DNA from: Agromyces mariniharenae
GTDB lineage: Bacteria > Actinomycetota > Actinomycetes > Actinomycetales > Microbacteriaceae
Assembly: GCF_008122505.1 (NCBI RefSeq)
Contig: NZ_VSSB01000001.1
Location: 2,464,891 to 2,528,890, forward strand
DNA: 64,000 bases
Direction of reading: 5' to 3'
A program made the translations under genes and the position numbers. This document shows, in pieces, positions 1,193 to 7,589 of this stretch (positions within the stretch are counted from its first letter, which is position 1; the number at the start of each line of letters is the position of its first letter). A model generated the notes under the pieces. The model was not told the origin of the DNA and did not search any database. It saw nothing but the letters and a program-made list of their open reading frames with translations.

Positions 1193-1211
1193 TTAGGATA
1201 GCCTTACCTAC
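1193..1211. promoter_or_regulatory. IdeR/DtxR-type iron box before the Fe(III) ABC operon
   Basis: TTAGGATAGCCTTACCTAC matches the DtxR/IdeR consensus TTAGGTTAGCCTAACCTAA at 16 of 19 positions. It ends 19 bp before the ATG of the binding-protein gene, where a bound repressor would block transcription. Iron-bound IdeR is the expected ligand (family knowledge). Confidence 0.8.
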
Positions 1212-1230
1212 CGCTGTGAGGAATCCATCT

Positions 1231-2250
1231 ATGCGTCCCCTGCTCCGTGCTGCCCTCGTTCCGCTCGCCGCCGTGCCGCTCCTGCTCGCGGGCTGCGCCA
1301 CGGGAGGAGGAGCCGCGCCCGACGACGCGCTCGTCGTCTACAACGCGCAGCACGAGCAGCTCACGGAGGAGTGGGTCGCGGCCTTCACCGAGGAGACGGG
1401 GATCGACGTCGTGCTCCGCAACGGCGGCGACAGCGAGCTGGCGAACCAGCTCGTCGCCGAGGGATCGGCGTCGCCCGCCGACGTGTTCCTCACCGAGAAC
1501 TCGCCCGCCATGTCGCTCGTCGAGGAGGCGGGCCTGTTCGCGCCCGTCGACGAGTCCACGCTCGAGCTCGTGCCCGAGCAGTACCGACCCTCCACGGGGG
1601 CGTGGACGGGCATCGCCGCCCGCTCGACCGTGCTCGTCTACAACCCGTCGCTCATCACCGAGGCCGAGCTGCCGGCCTCGCTCATGGACCTCCAGCAGCC
1701 CGAGTGGAAGGGTCGCTGGGGCGCGGCGCCGAGCGGTGCCGACTTCCAGGCCATCGTCTCGGCCGTGCTCGAGACGCAGGGCGAGGACGCTACCAGCGCG
1801 TGGCTCGAGGGCATGCACGAGAACGCGACCATCTACCGCAACAACATCGCGACGATGAAGGCCGTCAACGCGGGCGAGGTGCCAGTCGGCGTGATCTACC
1901 ACTACTACTGGTACCGCGACCAGGACGAGACGGCCGAGAACAGCGGCAACACCGAGCTGCACTACTTCGGCAACCAGGACCCCGGTGCGTTCGTGAGCGT
2001 CTCGGGCGGCGGCGTGCTGGAGTCGAGCGAGCGCGCCGAGGAGGCGCAGGAGTTCCTCGCGTGGCTCGCCGGCACCGAGGGTCAGACGATCCTCGGCGAG
2101 GGCTACAGCTTCGAGTACCCCGTCAGCTCGGGGGTGCCCGCACGTGAGCCGCTCCCGGCGCTCGACTCCCTCGGCGCTCCCGCGATCGACCCCTCGAAGC
2201 TGAACGGCCCCCAGGTCATCGACCTCATGACGGAAGCCGGACTCCTCTGA
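1231..2250 (+). CDS. Fe(III) ABC transporter substrate-binding lipoprotein
   Basis: 339-residue periplasmic-type binding protein that captures ferric iron outside the membrane and delivers it to the adjacent permease. An N-terminal lipoprotein signal ends in the lipobox LLAGC. The mature part begins with LVVYNAQHEQL, typical of FbpA/Idi1-type iron-binding proteins, and has the tyrosine-rich segment IYHYYWYRDQ that in this family supplies metal-ligating Tyr residues. I chose the ATG at 1231 because GAGGA lies 9 nt upstream; a GTG at 1216 is in frame but would overlap that ribosome site. First gene of a three-gene operon under an iron box. Confidence 0.92.
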   Translation: MRPLLRAALVPLAAVPLLLAGCATGGGAAPDDALVVYNAQHEQLTEEWVAAFTEETGIDVVLRNGGDSELANQLVAEGSASPADVFLTENSPAMSLVEEAGLFAPVDESTLELVPEQYRPSTGAWTGIAARSTVLVYNPSLITEAELPASLMDLQQPEWKGRWGAAPSGADFQAIVSAVLETQGEDATSAWLEGMHENATIYRNNIATMKAVNAGEVPVGVIYHYYWYRDQDETAENSGNTELHYFGNQDPGAFVSVSGGGVLESSERAEEAQEFLAWLAGTEGQTILGEGYSFEYPVSSGVPAREPLPALDSLGAPAIDPSKLNGPQVIDLMTEAGLL

Positions 2251-2318
2251 CCCAGACGGCGACGACACGAGCACCGGCGACGGTCGCCGACCGGAGGCGA
2301 CCGCCCGCCGGACTCGTC

Positions 2319-4897: not shown

Positions 4898-7542
4898 CGT
4901 CGGCGGCGCACCGCGCCGAGGCCCGTCGTCGCCAGGCGATACGCGTACCACGCGGCCACGCCCACCGCGAGCGAGAGCAGCGTTCCGAGCCACGGAGCCG
5001 ACTGCTCCCACGGCGGGTACACCACCCAGTGCGTCAGGTAGATGAACAGGGATGCCCCGGCGAGGAGCCGCACGACGGGCACGAGCGGGCGGGGCATCCG
5101 GAGGCTCGGCGCCCAGACCAGCAGCAGGATGCCCGCGATCACGACCCCCTCGCGCAGTGGGTCGCCGAAGAACCCGACGGTGGCCGCCACGGCGACGGCC
5201 GACACGAGGAGCCGCTTGCGCGCGGTGTCGGCCCGGGCGACCGCCCAGCCGAGCACCAGGCACCACAGCACGGTCGCCACGGCGTAGCGCTCGACGCCGT
5301 GCGCGTCGATGCCGACGAGCGCGAATCGGAGTCCGAGCGTCGCCGCGAGCAGCGCGAGCGCGAACGCCCACGGATGCCGCCGCTCGAGTCGGTCGACGGG
5401 CCGGACGGCGAACAGCAGCGCGAGGCCCAGCATCGTCCAGACGGCCGCCTCGAGGAACCAGAACTGCCACTGCTCGTTCCAGCGACCGTCGCCCGGGACC
5501 AGGTTGTTCACGAGCAGCGCGGTCGTCGGCACGTACTTGCCGCTGACCAGCGCGACCGCGCCGATCCAGAGCGCCGCGGGGATCGCGATCTGCGCCGCGC
5601 TGCGAAGCAGGCGCCGGGCACGGGCGCCGCCGGCCCCCGTCGCGAGCTGGAACCGGGCGAGGTTGTACCCCGCCACGGCGAGCAGGAGATGGGCGCCGCC
5701 CTTCACGCCGAGCAGGTCGGCGTGGGTGGCGACGATCAGGACGATCGCGATCGCCCGCAGCGTCGCCGGGGTCTCGACGTGCGGGAACCAGGAGCGGGAG
5801 CGCTTGGTGGCCTTGAGGCCGGGCTCGGCTCCCGGGGCGTCCGCTGTCGTCGGGGATCCGTCGGGCGTGGATTCGGCGCCCGCGCGGCCGTCGGCGGCGG
5901 CATCCGTGGTCGTCACGGTCTCGGCCAGCGCGCGCGGGGACTGCGAGGGCCAGTCGCGCGGAAGGCGGCCGAGCAGCTCCTCGAGCCGCAGCGAGACCTC
6001 GACGTAGCTGAGCGAGTCGCCGCCGAGCCCGGCGAAGGTGTCACCGGGCGTCGCGTCGGGCCGGCCCAGCAGCTCCGCGTAGAGGTCGCGGATGGTCTCG
6101 GCGGTGACCGTGCCGTCCGCGGCATCCGCGGCATCCGTTGCGGTCTCGTCGGCCCGGCGGTCGAGCAGGTCGGCGTGGCGCACGAGGGCGGCGAAGTCGG
6201 GCTTGCCGGTCGACGTGCACGGGAACTCCGCGATCGGGTAGGCCCGCACGGCGTGACCGGGGATGCCGAGCAGCGCCGCCGCACGCGTGCGTGCCGCCTC
6301 GAGCTGTCGCTCGGCGCGGACGAACACGAGCAGCCGCTCGCCCGCGCTCGCGGTGCGCACCTCGATGCCCTCGTCGGCGAGAAGGCGCTGCACCGCGTCC
6401 AGGTCGACCCGGAGTCCGAAGACCTTGACGAACCGGTTCATGCGGCCGACGACCTCGAACAGGCCGTCCTCGCGCTGCTTCGCGAGGTCCCCGGTGCGGA
6501 GCTCGTGGACGGTGCGCCCGAGCGCGAAGTCGTCGGGCGACTCGGCGTACCCGAGCATGACGTTCGGACCCTCGTAGACGAGCTCGCCGACGTGCGCACC
6601 GAGCTCGGCGTCGATGCGGAGGCGGCCGCCCGGGATCGGCCGGCCGATCGACCCCGCGGCCTGCTCGGCGAGCTCGGCGGGGACGTACGCCATGCGCGCC
6701 GTCGCCTCGGTCTGCCCGTACATGACGAAGAACTCGAACGCCCGGCGCTCGCCGAGCCGGGCGAACCGGCGCACGGCCTCGGGCGCCAGCCGTCCGCCGG
6801 CCTGCGTGAGGTAGCGGATGCTCGAGGGCATGCGCTCGGCGAACCCGCCGGCCTCGAGCAGCTCGAAGGTGTAGGGGACCCCGGCGAACGACGTGATCCG
6901 GTGCTCGGATGCCTCGTGCCAGAACCCTGGGTCGGTGACCGAGCGATCGGTGAGCACGAGGCTCGCGCCCGCGACGAGGTGGCTGTTGATCACGGAGAGC
7001 CCGTAGCAGTAGTGCATCGGCAGCGTCGTCGCCGCCCGGTCGTCGGGCGTCAGCCGCAGGTACTCGGCGATCGCCCGTGCGTTGCTCTCGAGGTTCTCGC
7101 GCGAGAGGCGGACCAGCTTCGGCGACCCGGTCGATCCCGAGGTGCTGGCCAACAGCGCGAGCTCGGGGGCGAACCGGTGCACACTGCCCTCGCGGACCTC
7201 GTGCAGGGCGACGGCGTCGCCCGACCCGGCCGCCACGAGGTCGGGATCGAATCGCTCGGCGAGCGACGCGCGATGCCGGATCGATCCCTCGTCATCGCCG
7301 GGGGCGACCAGCAGCACCGGGTGCCCGCCGGCCAGTGCGGACAGGTACGTGATGACGGGTTCGACGGCGTTCGCCGCCTGCAGCATCACCAGGCGTCGAC
7401 CCGAACCGAGCTCAGCCCGTCGCGCGTCGACCCGGTCGGCGAGGTCGCCGTAGCTGATCCGCTCGTCGCCCGACACCAGCGCGACGTCGTCGGCAGTCCC
7501 ACCGAGGAGGGTCAGGCCGGGCGAGGGTGCGGTTCTGAGCAC
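4837..7542 (-). CDS. Adenylation-carrier-membrane acyltransferase fusion (iron-box controlled)
   Basis: 901 residues with three parts. Residues 1-460 are an adenylate-forming enzyme: P-loop TSGSTGSPK (134-142), YGQTEAT (275-281), TGDL (350-353) and STGKPDF with the C-terminal Lys447. Residues 480-545 are a phosphopantetheine carrier, GLGGDSLS, attachment Ser510. Residues 590-880 form a polytopic acyltransferase-3 domain whose first helix has the family R-x10-H motif (Arg596, His607). Reading: a carboxylic acid is activated, loaded on the fused carrier and transferred at the membrane; substrate and acceptor unknown. GTG start with GGAG 7 nt upstream; an IdeR-like box lies 29-47 bp upstream. 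The iron box suggests a siderophore-related or low-iron envelope role, but no siderophore genes are adjacent. Confidence 0.85.
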   Translation of the reverse strand: MLRTAPSPGLTLLGGTADDVALVSGDERISYGDLADRVDARRAELGSGRRLVMLQAANAVEPVITYLSALAGGHPVLLVAPGDDEGSIRHRASLAERFDPDLVAAGSGDAVALHEVREGSVHRFAPELALLASTSGSTGSPKLVRLSRENLESNARAIAEYLRLTPDDRAATTLPMHYCYGLSVINSHLVAGASLVLTDRSVTDPGFWHEASEHRITSFAGVPYTFELLEAGGFAERMPSSIRYLTQAGGRLAPEAVRRFARLGERRAFEFFVMYGQTEATARMAYVPAELAEQAAGSIGRPIPGGRLRIDAELGAHVGELVYEGPNVMLGYAESPDDFALGRTVHELRTGDLAKQREDGLFEVVGRMNRFVKVFGLRVDLDAVQRLLADEGIEVRTASAGERLLVFVRAERQLEAARTRAAALLGIPGHAVRAYPIAEFPCTSTGKPDFAALVRHADLLDRRADETATDAADAADGTVTAETIRDLYAELLGRPDATPGDTFAGLGGDSLSYVEVSLRLEELLGRLPRDWPSQSPRALAETVTTTDAAADGRAGAESTPDGSPTTADAPGAEPGLKATKRSRSWFPHVETPATLRAIAIVLIVATHADLLGVKGGAHLLLAVAGYNLARFQLATGAGGARARRLLRSAAQIAIPAALWIGAVALVSGKYVPTTALLVNNLVPGDGRWNEQWQFWFLEAAVWTMLGLALLFAVRPVDRLERRHPWAFALALLAATLGLRFALVGIDAHGVERYAVATVLWCLVLGWAVARADTARKRLLVSAVAVAATVGFFGDPLREGVVIAGILLLVWAPSLRMPRPLVPVVRLLAGASLFIYLTHWVVYPPWEQSAPWLGTLLSLAVGVAAWYAYRLATTGLGAVRRRRQPAGVASGTSVRRRSAVSG

Positions 7543-7570
7543 GACGGATCTCCGGTTGGCGAACAGGGGG

Positions 7571-7589
7571 TCAGGTTAGCCTACCCTAA
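7571..7589. promoter_or_regulatory. IdeR/DtxR-type iron box before the adenylation/acyltransferase fusion
   Basis: TCAGGTTAGCCTACCCTAA matches the DtxR/IdeR consensus at 17 of 19 positions, better than the box in front of the Fe(III) ABC operon. It ends 28 bp upstream of the GTG at 7542 on the minus strand. Expected to be bound by iron-loaded IdeR, giving expression under iron limitation. Confidence 0.82.

What the first reader, a model, noticed from the sequence alone, without database searches (positions are those of the whole stretch)
1193..7589. Iron-box regulated island pairing an Fe(III) importer with an adenylation-carrier-acyltransferase fusion
Two IdeR-like boxes (16/19 and 17/19 matches) bracket two convergent units whose ends overlap by 61 bp: the importer and a 901-residue protein joining an adenylate-forming domain, a carrier with Ser510, and an R-x10-H membrane acyltransferase. 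Inference: low iron turns on both iron uptake and acylation of an envelope lipid, glycan or exported small molecule. The one-protein activate-load-transfer design at the membrane, outside any visible siderophore cluster, is the best candidate here for an undescribed system.
Basis: partly seen in the sequence, partly recalled or inferred. Interest (0 to 1): 0.85.

Follow-up and report, generated by a model that had tools for sequence, protein, structure and literature searches.

The report
Iron-starvation acyltransferase paired with ferric importer
Next to a classic ferric-iron importer, and under the same kind of iron-sensing switch, sits a one-protein enzyme that appears to activate a small acid, hold it on its own carrier and pass it across the membrane; related bacteria, and even rhizobia, seem to keep this enzyme under iron control, so it looks like an undescribed helper of siderophore-free iron uptake.

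Summary
Window 1193-7589 holds two DtxR/IdeR-type boxes (16/19, 17/19; none expected by chance). They flank a YfuA/SfuA-type ferric importer (FbpABC) and a convergent 901-aa protein with adenylation, carrier (Ser510) and AT3 acyltransferase domains ("ACT"), overlapping by 61 bp.

Comparison supports the coupling. In Microbacteriaceae the ACT start carries a box of at least 14/19 in 31 of 32 loci, against 0 of 3474 control windows; the importer lies beside ACT in 21 of 30 distinct loci. In Mycobacterium 41 of 45 close FbpA copies are followed by ACT. All 12 + 55 ACT genomes found also carry an FbpA-type importer. Gene order varies, and related ACTs pair with two distant FbpABC lineages. Alphaproteobacterial homologs show another regulator's box (RirA IRO) in 10 of 15 loci, but an Fe importer next door in only 1 of 15.

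Best reading: low iron induces a membrane acyltransferase that places a carboxylic acid on an extracytoplasmic acceptor to help siderophore-free Fe(III) uptake. Substrate, acceptor and iron response are untested; the pocket suggests an acid without alpha-amino group.

The parts
1193..1211 (.). Iron box 1 (DtxR/IdeR/DmdR type), upstream of fbpA
   Evidence: 16/19 to the palindromic consensus; 0 expected. Homologous FbpA starts carry a box of >=14/19 in 19 of 21 Microbacteriaceae loci (window included) and >=13 in 21 of 21.
1231..2250 (+). FbpA: ferric-iron binding lipoprotein (lipobox LLLAGC read by eye), YfuA/SfuA type
   Evidence: PF13343/PF13416; solved YfuA E 1e-126, SfuA E 7e-123, HitA and FbpA further down.
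2319..3806 (+). FbpB: permease with two BPD_transp_1 stretches in one chain; start uncertain, frame open from 2250
   Evidence: PF00528, 2 stretches; 75-83% identity to its counterpart beside ACT in five other Agromyces loci.
3803..4897 (+). FbpC: ABC ATPase with TOBE_2 domain
   Evidence: PF00005 E 1.5e-37, PF08402.
4837..4897 (.). 61-bp tail-to-tail overlap of fbpC and the fusion gene
   Evidence: ORF coordinates.
4837..7542 (-). ACT: adenylation-carrier-AT3 fusion, 901 aa
   Evidence: Pfam; the 120 listed homologs all show AMP-binding and Acyl_transf_3 in the precomputed Pfam column.
6172..7542 (-). Adenylation domain (residues about 1-457); Lys447, Gly181 and Arg283 lie here
5968..6099 (-). 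Carrier domain (residues 482-525), Ser510 codon at 6013-6015
   Evidence: PF00550 E 2.4e-6; Ser510 invariant in alignment A1.
4897..5772 (-). AT3 (Acyl_transf_3) membrane domain, residues about 591-882; Arg596-x10-His607 (5722-5757), Arg644-x2-Arg647 (read by eye)
7571..7589 (.). Iron box 2, upstream of the fusion gene
   Evidence: 17/19; 0 expected. Kept at the ACT start in 31 of 32 Microbacteriaceae loci at >=14/19.

Best explanation
An iron-starvation gene pair. When Fe(II)-loaded DtxR/IdeR-type repressor is scarce, two promoters open. One makes a siderophore-independent Fe(III) importer (FbpABC, Sfu/Yfu type). The other makes a membrane enzyme that (1) adenylates a small carboxylic acid without an alpha-amino group, (2) loads it on the phosphopantetheine arm of its own carrier (Ser510), and (3) uses its AT3 domain to hand the acyl group through the membrane to an extracytoplasmic acceptor, the carrier taking the place that acyl-CoA has in ordinary AT3 enzymes. 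The acylated product most likely supplies carboxylate ligands at or near the cell surface that hold Fe(III) for FbpA. Shown here: domains and catalytic residues intact, boxes present, linkage conserved. Inferred from established families: steps 1-3. Inference only: the acid's identity, the acceptor and the ligand role.
For: Box at the ACT start in 31 of 32 Microbacteriaceae loci vs 0 of 3474 control windows. The importer genes are the only neighbours shared by more than 4 of the 32 fetched loci. In Mycobacterium 41 of 45 close FbpA copies have ACT within 8 kb, all same strand and downstream. Every ACT genome found has an FbpA-type match: 12 of 12 vs 60 of 287 others in Microbacteriaceae, 55 of 55 vs 10 of 93 in Mycobacterium (relatedness not corrected; by genus 8 of 8 within 28 of 85, P 6e-5). 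Of 16 genomes whose ACT and importer are unlinked I fetched 12 importer loci; 11 carry their own box of >=14/19. Gene orders: convergent, FbpABC-ACT, ACT-FbpABC, divergent. Partner swap: mycobacterial ACTs 59-62% identical while their FbpA are 36-37%. In Alphaproteobacteria the RirA IRO TGA-N9-TCA lies within 150 bp upstream in 10 of 15 loci vs 57 of 738 control windows (IRO from passages of PMC8822346 and PMC6386902). No condensation domain in the 12 ACT genomes searched. Pocket: Gly at the Asp235 site and Arg283 at the 331 site, kept in Actinomycetota and Proteobacteria; an Arg at 331 is proposed to bind a free carboxylate in VinN, BolO and AfcQ (passages of PMC7756342 and PMC12186527). AT3 proteins are modelled to present acyl-CoA through a pore and some transfer succinyl groups (passages of PMC9833829, PMC9558356). 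A SfuB-like importer in M. smegmatis supports siderophore-independent low-iron growth (passages of PMC6684656).
Against: No expression, binding or chemistry data. ACT is patchy: 12 of 299 Microbacteriaceae genomes, 2 of 6 Agromyces in that sample (only the 3 best first-look candidates per genome were scored, so misses are possible). Related FbpABC loci exist without it (14). In Proteobacteria only 1 of 15 loci has a recognisable Fe(III) importer next door, and 5 of 15 lack the IRO; one (L184) aligns Leu at Ser510. Phylum-wide the ACT start has a box of >=14/19 in only 6 of 13 assessable loci, and two unlinked mycobacterial ACTs have at best 13/19 (L161) or nothing >=13 (L162). Pfam's AT3 model misses some relatives: no match at 1e-4 in L176 and L179, below cut-off in L182, and many rows lack it. 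Absence of IucA/IucC is not distinctive: 0 of 12 ACT genomes vs 17 of 287 others, P = 1. The IRO's TGA half overlaps a TTGAC -35-like element, so part of that signal may be promoter. Full-length model pTM is 0.53, so domain packing is not informative. Arg283 could have a structural role.
Confidence: 0.55

Rival explanations
1. One-enzyme small chelator. The AT3 domain acylates a small polyol, sugar or amine that is released as a diffusible weak chelator, and FbpA takes Fe(III) from it. The same chemistry, but the product leaves the cell.
For: No condensation domain and no IucA/IucC synthetase in the 12 ACT Microbacteriaceae genomes. ACT also occurs as a solo iron-boxed gene, as a shared-good enzyme might. 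AT3 proteins are reported in antibiotic biosynthesis (abstract beginnings of PMC9833829 and PMC7448272 in listing 74).
Against: No exporter, acceptor-making gene or receptor shared by the loci. FbpA belongs to the YfuA/SfuA ferric-ion class rather than to siderophore-binding PF01497.
Confidence: 0.25
2. Envelope remodelling without iron binding. Low iron triggers acylation of an envelope glycan or lipid that changes charge or permeability, as D-alanylation by Dlt does, and this merely accompanies iron uptake.
For: Activate-carrier-membrane-transferase logic is that of DltA-DltC-DltB (recalled); the AT3 targets reviewed in PMC9558356 are mainly surface carbohydrates (passages).
Against: One-way dependence on an FbpA-type importer in the 67 ACT genomes of the two samples, and same-strand gene strings with it in Mycobacterium and Rhodococcus. 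Asp235 is replaced by Gly, so an amino acid donor such as D-alanine is unlikely.
Confidence: 0.2
3. Genomic coincidence: the fusion is an ordinary NRPS-like gene that happens to sit near an importer and shares a general iron-limitation response.
For: 9 of 30 distinct Microbacteriaceae loci and 14 of 15 proteobacterial loci have no recognisable Fe importer next door.
Against: Linkage in at least four gene orders, in several actinobacterial lineages and once in an alphaproteobacterium, with a partner swap.
Confidence: 0.05

Closest known systems
Sfu/Yfu/Fbp ferric-ion ABC importers (SfuABC, YfuABC, HitABC; the SfuB-like MSMEG_3633-3636 of M. smegmatis)
   Same: Binding protein matches solved YfuA and SfuA over its whole mature length; single-chain double permease plus ATPase; low-iron role shown for the M. 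smegmatis importer (passages of PMC6684656).
   Different: The importer here is ordinary. New is its partner enzyme. PMC6684656 describes a three-gene transporter and plots a 'msmeg_3630-3636 operon'; the word acyltransferase does not occur in its main text. Its stated orthologs M. vanbaalenii and M. thermoresistibile do carry ACT; whether M. smegmatis does was not tested.
Acyltransferase-3 / TmAT family (OafB, OatA, MdoC/OpgC, ExoH, HGSNAT)
   Same: PF01757, Arg-x10-His, RxxR, same fold as HGSNAT and GWT1.
   Different: N-terminal A and carrier domains instead of acyl-CoA supply. The passages I saw of three AT3/TmAT papers name SGNH, racemase and NRF fusions; the term AMP-binding does not occur in any of the three main texts, nor phosphopantetheine in the two where it was searched.
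Dlt D-alanylation system (DltA ligase, DltC carrier, DltB MBOAT)
   Same: Works alike: activate, load on a carrier, transfer at the membrane (recalled).
   Different: Transferase is AT3, not MBOAT; all in one chain; no alpha-amino-binding Asp; iron-boxed.
NRPS and NRPS-like enzymes, including Microbacterium 'NRPS-like' genes read as siderophore-linked in PMC7438953 (section 16 and passages)
   Same: A plus carrier domains; that paper's types A and B have A, PCP and a terminal domain with acyltransferase activity and may overlap with ACT.
   Different: No condensation domain in the 12 ACT genomes searched. Their type A lies beside aminopeptidase N, not an Fe importer, and the section names no iron boxes.
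Adenylating ligases with Arg at position 331 (VinN, BolO, AfcQ)
   Same: Arg at the 331 site; model 26-27% identical to VinN and HitB structures.
   Different: They keep the Asp proposed to bind the amino group; ACT has Gly there.

Membership tests
Sfu/Yfu/Fbp ferric ABC importer | Substrate-binding protein of the ferric-binding class | tested here: met
   E 1e-126 to YfuA, 7e-123 to SfuA.
Sfu/Yfu/Fbp ferric ABC importer | Double permease and ABC ATPase in the same gene string | tested here: met
   PF00528 twice, PF00005.
Sfu/Yfu/Fbp ferric ABC importer | Fe(III) binding and transport | not testable with these tools
   Needs protein or uptake assay.
DtxR/IdeR (DmdR) regulon | 19-bp palindromic box at the promoter | tested here: met
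   16/19 and 17/19, 0 expected; conserved.
DtxR/IdeR (DmdR) regulon | Regulator encoded in the genome | tested here: met
   Two strong PF01325 matches, 71 and 69 bits, among 4 over the cut-off.
DtxR/IdeR (DmdR) regulon | Iron-dependent binding and repression | not testable with these tools
   No expression or binding data.
AT3 / TmAT acyltransferase | PF01757 domain with Arg-x10-His | tested here: met
   48.2 bits vs cut-off 31; R596/H607 invariant in A1.
AT3 / TmAT acyltransferase | TmAT core fold | tested here: met
AT3 / TmAT acyltransferase | Acyl transfer activity | not testable with these tools
   Substrate unknown.
Modular NRPS | A and carrier domains with catalytic Lys and Ser | tested here: met
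   PF00501, PF00550; K447 and S510 invariant in A1.
Modular NRPS | Condensation domain in the protein or genome | tested here: not met
   No PF00668 in the protein nor in the 12 genomes searched.
Dlt system | MBOAT transferase | tested here: not met
   Membrane domain is PF01757 with TmAT fold.
NIS siderophore pathway | IucA/IucC synthetase | tested here: not met
   None in the window's genome; 3 of 28 ACT genome handles have one.
Exosortase-associated ligase TIGR03098 | Score over the curated cut-off | tested here: not met
   137 bits vs 592.
RirA regulon (alphaproteobacterial homologs) | IRO box TGA-N9-TCA at the promoter | tested here: inconclusive
   Present in 10 of 15 loci vs 57 of 738 control windows, absent in 5 of 15; binding untested.

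The most novel reading that the evidence does not exclude
A categorically new, siderophore-free iron-acquisition route shared by Actinomycetota and Alphaproteobacteria: a single membrane protein makes the iron ligand. It activates a ubiquitous alpha-hydroxy or dicarboxylic metabolite (malate, citrate or 2-oxoglutarate would fit), carries it on its own phosphopantetheine arm into the AT3 pore, and esterifies it to a surface glycan or lipid, so that the cell envelope itself becomes a ferric trap feeding an Fbp/Sfu importer.
Probability: 0.3. Interest if true: 0.92.

Novelty: new variant of a known kind. Interest (0 to 1): 0.76.

Why it matters
Importers of the Sfu/Fbp class work without siderophores, but how free Fe(III) is kept available outside a Gram-positive or mycobacterial cell is, to my knowledge, unclear. 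A conserved, iron-boxed enzyme that in two samples occurs only together with such importers (67 of 67 ACT genomes) gives a concrete, deletable gene for that question. It also suggests a carrier-fed version of AT3 transferases, which are otherwise thought to use acyl-CoA. Two unrelated iron regulators appear to control the same enzyme family in two phyla, which makes an iron role hard to dismiss.

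Tried and rejected
Amino-acid substrate (for example D-alanine, Dlt-like): disfavoured because the Asp235 site is Gly in the 120 homologs listed and the 120 listed. Aryl-acid starter (DHB, salicylate): the aryl-type A5 motif quoted in PMC11253843 is not in ACT by eye, but this is not a test. Replacement of siderophores: ACT and IucA/IucC are not significantly anti-correlated (0 of 12 vs 17 of 287, P = 1), so I do not claim it. Exosortase ligase or AmcH (2-oxoglutaryl ligase) membership: below cut-offs. 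Structure searches of the full model were filled by adenylation domains, so the AT3 domain was folded alone. Naming the acid from the pocket remained a guess. Linking ACT to M. smegmatis failed: no M. smegmatis sequence appeared in the lists (each the best 120). Rows dropped: L012 and L140 (contig ends) from box counts. L047 matches only from residue 98, which is probably why no box was found. The 3474 control windows do not overlap and skip about 6% of start positions at their borders.

Absence from print: searches over open-licence PubMed Central listed no paper whose title or shown abstract describes an A-carrier-AT3 protein in iron uptake. Only the listed rows were seen. Subscription papers are mostly not held, and PMC1698941 (RirA regulon prediction) was not held.

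Full report
WHAT IS THERE. The window lies in a 4.08-Mb genome; its closest named homolog is from Agromyces sp. NPDC004153 (96%). Two 19-bp palindromic sites, 1193-1211 (16/19) and 7571-7589 (17/19), are the only ones with up to 3 mismatches in 64 kb; shuffles gave none. Between them run fbpA-fbpB-fbpC on the plus strand and, tail to tail with a 61-bp overlap, a 901-aa gene on the minus strand. FbpA is a ferric-binding protein of the YfuA/SfuA class. The 901-aa protein, here called ACT, has AMP-binding, PP-binding and Acyl_transf_3 domains. In 89 aligned sequences, window included, Lys447, Ser510, Arg596 and His607 never vary.

ARE THE BOXES REAL SIGNALS? In the window's own genome a looser pattern finds 7 sites, against 3 for the reversed pattern. 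Two are these; three others stand by a Peripla_BP_2/FecCD importer, a siderophore-interacting protein and a heme oxygenase; the remaining two stand by a DUF1540 gene and between an ABC ATPase and a glycosyltransferase, with no clear iron role. Two strong DtxR-family regulators are encoded. Across Microbacteriaceae loci, the stretch -250 to +60 of the ACT start holds a box of at least 14/19 in 31 of 32, window included (29 of 30 without two duplicate records). None of 3474 control windows from the fetched loci does so. The FbpA start holds one in 19 of 21, and at least 13/19 in 21 of 21.

NEIGHBOURHOOD. The genome-contig scan gave 21 loci and the family search 11 more besides the window. The importer lies beside ACT in 21 of 30. 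In 19 it is the convergent arrangement with an FbpA close to the window's (74% or more). L014 has FbpB/C-like genes of another subfamily, also convergent (no FbpA match on its 9-kb contig), and L054 another FbpABC subfamily, divergent. The other 9, five of them Cryobacterium, have ACT alone, each with a box of at least 14/19. Apart from the importer no neighbour is shared by more than 4 of the 32 loci. Conversely, 14 related FbpABC loci (57-69% FbpA identity) carry a box (14 of 14 at >=14/19) but no ACT. The importer is therefore iron-boxed in its own right and ACT is an add-on. Caution: in the genome searches only the best few first-look candidates per genome were scored (3, 2, 6), so some ACT genes may be missed.

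BEYOND THE FAMILY. A phylum sample (396 genomes) turned up further fusions; I fetched 17 loci. Fourteen hold the fusion and three only a stand-alone adenylating enzyme with the same key residues. Five of the fourteen have FbpABC-type genes adjacent (L135-L137, L139, L141). Boxes of >=14/19 stand at the ACT start in 6 of 13 assessable loci, and at the FbpA that heads the gene string in L135 and L137 but not L136; two further mycobacterial strings have 15/19 and 16/19 before FbpA. In 148 Mycobacterium genomes ACT occurs in 55 and a close FbpA (72% or more) in 44, as 45 copies. Of these copies, 41 have ACT within 8 kb, all same strand and downstream. All 13 ACT genomes without a close FbpA have a more distant one (38-41%), adjacent to ACT in two. 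So the 55 mycobacterial and 12 Microbacteriaceae ACT genomes all have an FbpA-type match, while 65 of 148 and 72 of 299 genomes overall do. Fisher tests give 1e-30 and 2e-8 without correction for relatedness; by genus, 8 of 8 ACT genera fall within 28 FbpA genera of 85, P 6e-5. Of 16 genomes with unlinked ACT and importer I fetched 12 importer loci, and 11 carry their own box of >=14/19; two unlinked mycobacterial ACT starts that I fetched had only 13/19 (L161) or nothing >=13 (L162). The mycobacterial ACTs beside the two importer lineages are 59-62% identical while their FbpA are 36-37%: the enzyme kept its place when the importer was exchanged. ACT and FbpA distances correlate in 17 convergent Microbacteriaceae loci, window included (rho 0.84, 0 of 2000 permutations), as expected of a pair inherited together.

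PLASMIDS AND PROTEOBACTERIA. Against 72,556 plasmids a mycobacterial ACT matched 86 records and a Pararhizobium one 84. I opened 21 loci of these: 6 actinobacterial and 15 labelled Proteobacteria. Rhodococcus opacus B4, R. fascians D188 and R. gordoniae have the order ACT-FbpA-FbpB-FbpC; Mycolicibacterium crocinum and M. chubuense have FbpABC-ACT (M. crocinum is the record behind L137); an Arthrobacter plasmid has ACT alone with a 15/19 box. The 15 proteobacterial homologs are 34-37% identical and keep Gly181 and Arg283 in 15 of 15; one (L184) aligns Leu at the carrier Ser, and L185 looks split. One, from Roseateles, is marked unverified in its record. Only Pararhizobium sp. A13 has a recognisable Fe(3+) ABC transporter next door; a few others have ABC transporters of unassigned substrate within 8 kb (for example L185, L186, L189), and one locus (L175) is unannotated. 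This speaks against an obligatory pairing there. Yet the RirA operator TGA-N9-TCA (passages of PMC8822346 and PMC6386902) lies within 150 bp upstream in 10 of 15, against 57 of 738 control windows of 330 bp. Two of the ten, both from R. etli, are 99% identical, and the TGA half overlaps a TTGAC element, so the binomial value (1.6e-8) is too optimistic. Iron control by an unrelated regulator in another phylum is nevertheless the most telling outside support, if confirmed.

HOW IT MOST LIKELY WORKS. The A domain models and aligns well. Read against LgrA, the Asp that binds an alpha-amino group is Gly181; the alpha-hydroxy and alpha-keto acid A domains discussed in PMC11253843 also lack that Asp (passages). 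The 331 site is Arg283; in VinN, BolO and AfcQ an Arg there is proposed to hold a free carboxylate (passages). Gly181 and Arg283 are the same in the 120 homologs, the 120 and 17 of 17 scorable further fusions. I infer one shared, common carboxylic acid, perhaps with a second carboxylate; this is not a test. The AT3 domain folds like HGSNAT; Pfam's AT3 model nevertheless misses or scores low on some relatives. AT3 proteins are thought to carry an acyl-CoA through a membrane pore to an outside acceptor, and several transfer succinyl groups (passages of PMC9833829 and PMC9558356). A carrier-bound arm could replace CoA. Given the tie to a ferric-ion importer, the product most plausibly holds Fe(III) outside the membrane. 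That last step is inference.

KNOWN CONTEXT. In M. smegmatis a SfuB-like ferric importer (MSMEG_3633-3636) is needed for low-iron growth without siderophores (passages of PMC6684656), and two of its genes rise under citrate chelation (passages of PMC10597346). The authors name orthologs in M. vanbaalenii and M. thermoresistibile; both species carry ACT. Whether M. smegmatis has ACT was not established. A Microbacterium genome survey noted NRPS-like genes with a terminal acyltransferase activity and suggested siderophores (PMC7438953, section 16 and passages); these may include ACT, but neither the importer link nor iron boxes are named in that section. No listed paper describes the system by title or shown abstract.

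VERDICT. The finding is real and its regulatory pairing is well supported by comparison; the chemistry is open. Its parts are known; their combination and use appear not to be described in what I could search.

Noticed in passing
11-1129 (+): Histidine kinase just upstream of the island scores 528 bits against the VanS-O model (cut-off 720, not met).
   Followed up: no
7755-8099 (+): 114-aa ORF next to the island without any Pfam or NCBIfam match.
   Followed up: no
L142 3209-4270 (-), L144 2286-3656 (+): Stand-alone adenylating enzymes with the same key pocket residues as ACT sit with a small carrier protein, an SDR and LuxE/LuxC-like genes (carrier and SDR read by eye); this cluster could reveal the acid that is activated.
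   Followed up: partly
L090, L092, L093 (FbpABC loci without ACT): In 3 of 14 ACT-less importer loci another AMP-binding enzyme (about 500-525 aa, 28-29% to ACT) stands next to fbpA.
   Followed up: partly
L052 15411-16127 (-): An iron-dependent DtxR-family repressor with FeoA domain is encoded right beside the Fbp-ACT island in this genome.
   Followed up: yes
G706 (Mycobacterium-group genome, two places): One genome carries two FbpA-ACT pairs.
   Followed up: no
L139: ACT stands between an FbpC-like gene on one side and FbpB- and FbpA-like genes on the other, as if inserted into the importer string.
   Followed up: no
Agromyces genomes G000, G280, G142, G194, G079, G240: ACT (2 of 6) and IucA/IucC synthetase (2 of 6) do not overlap within the genus; too few to test.
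   Followed up: partly
L185 7001-9485 (+): The Rhizobium sp. RCAM05350 homolog is split into two matching pieces and annotated short; possibly a broken copy.
   Followed up: no
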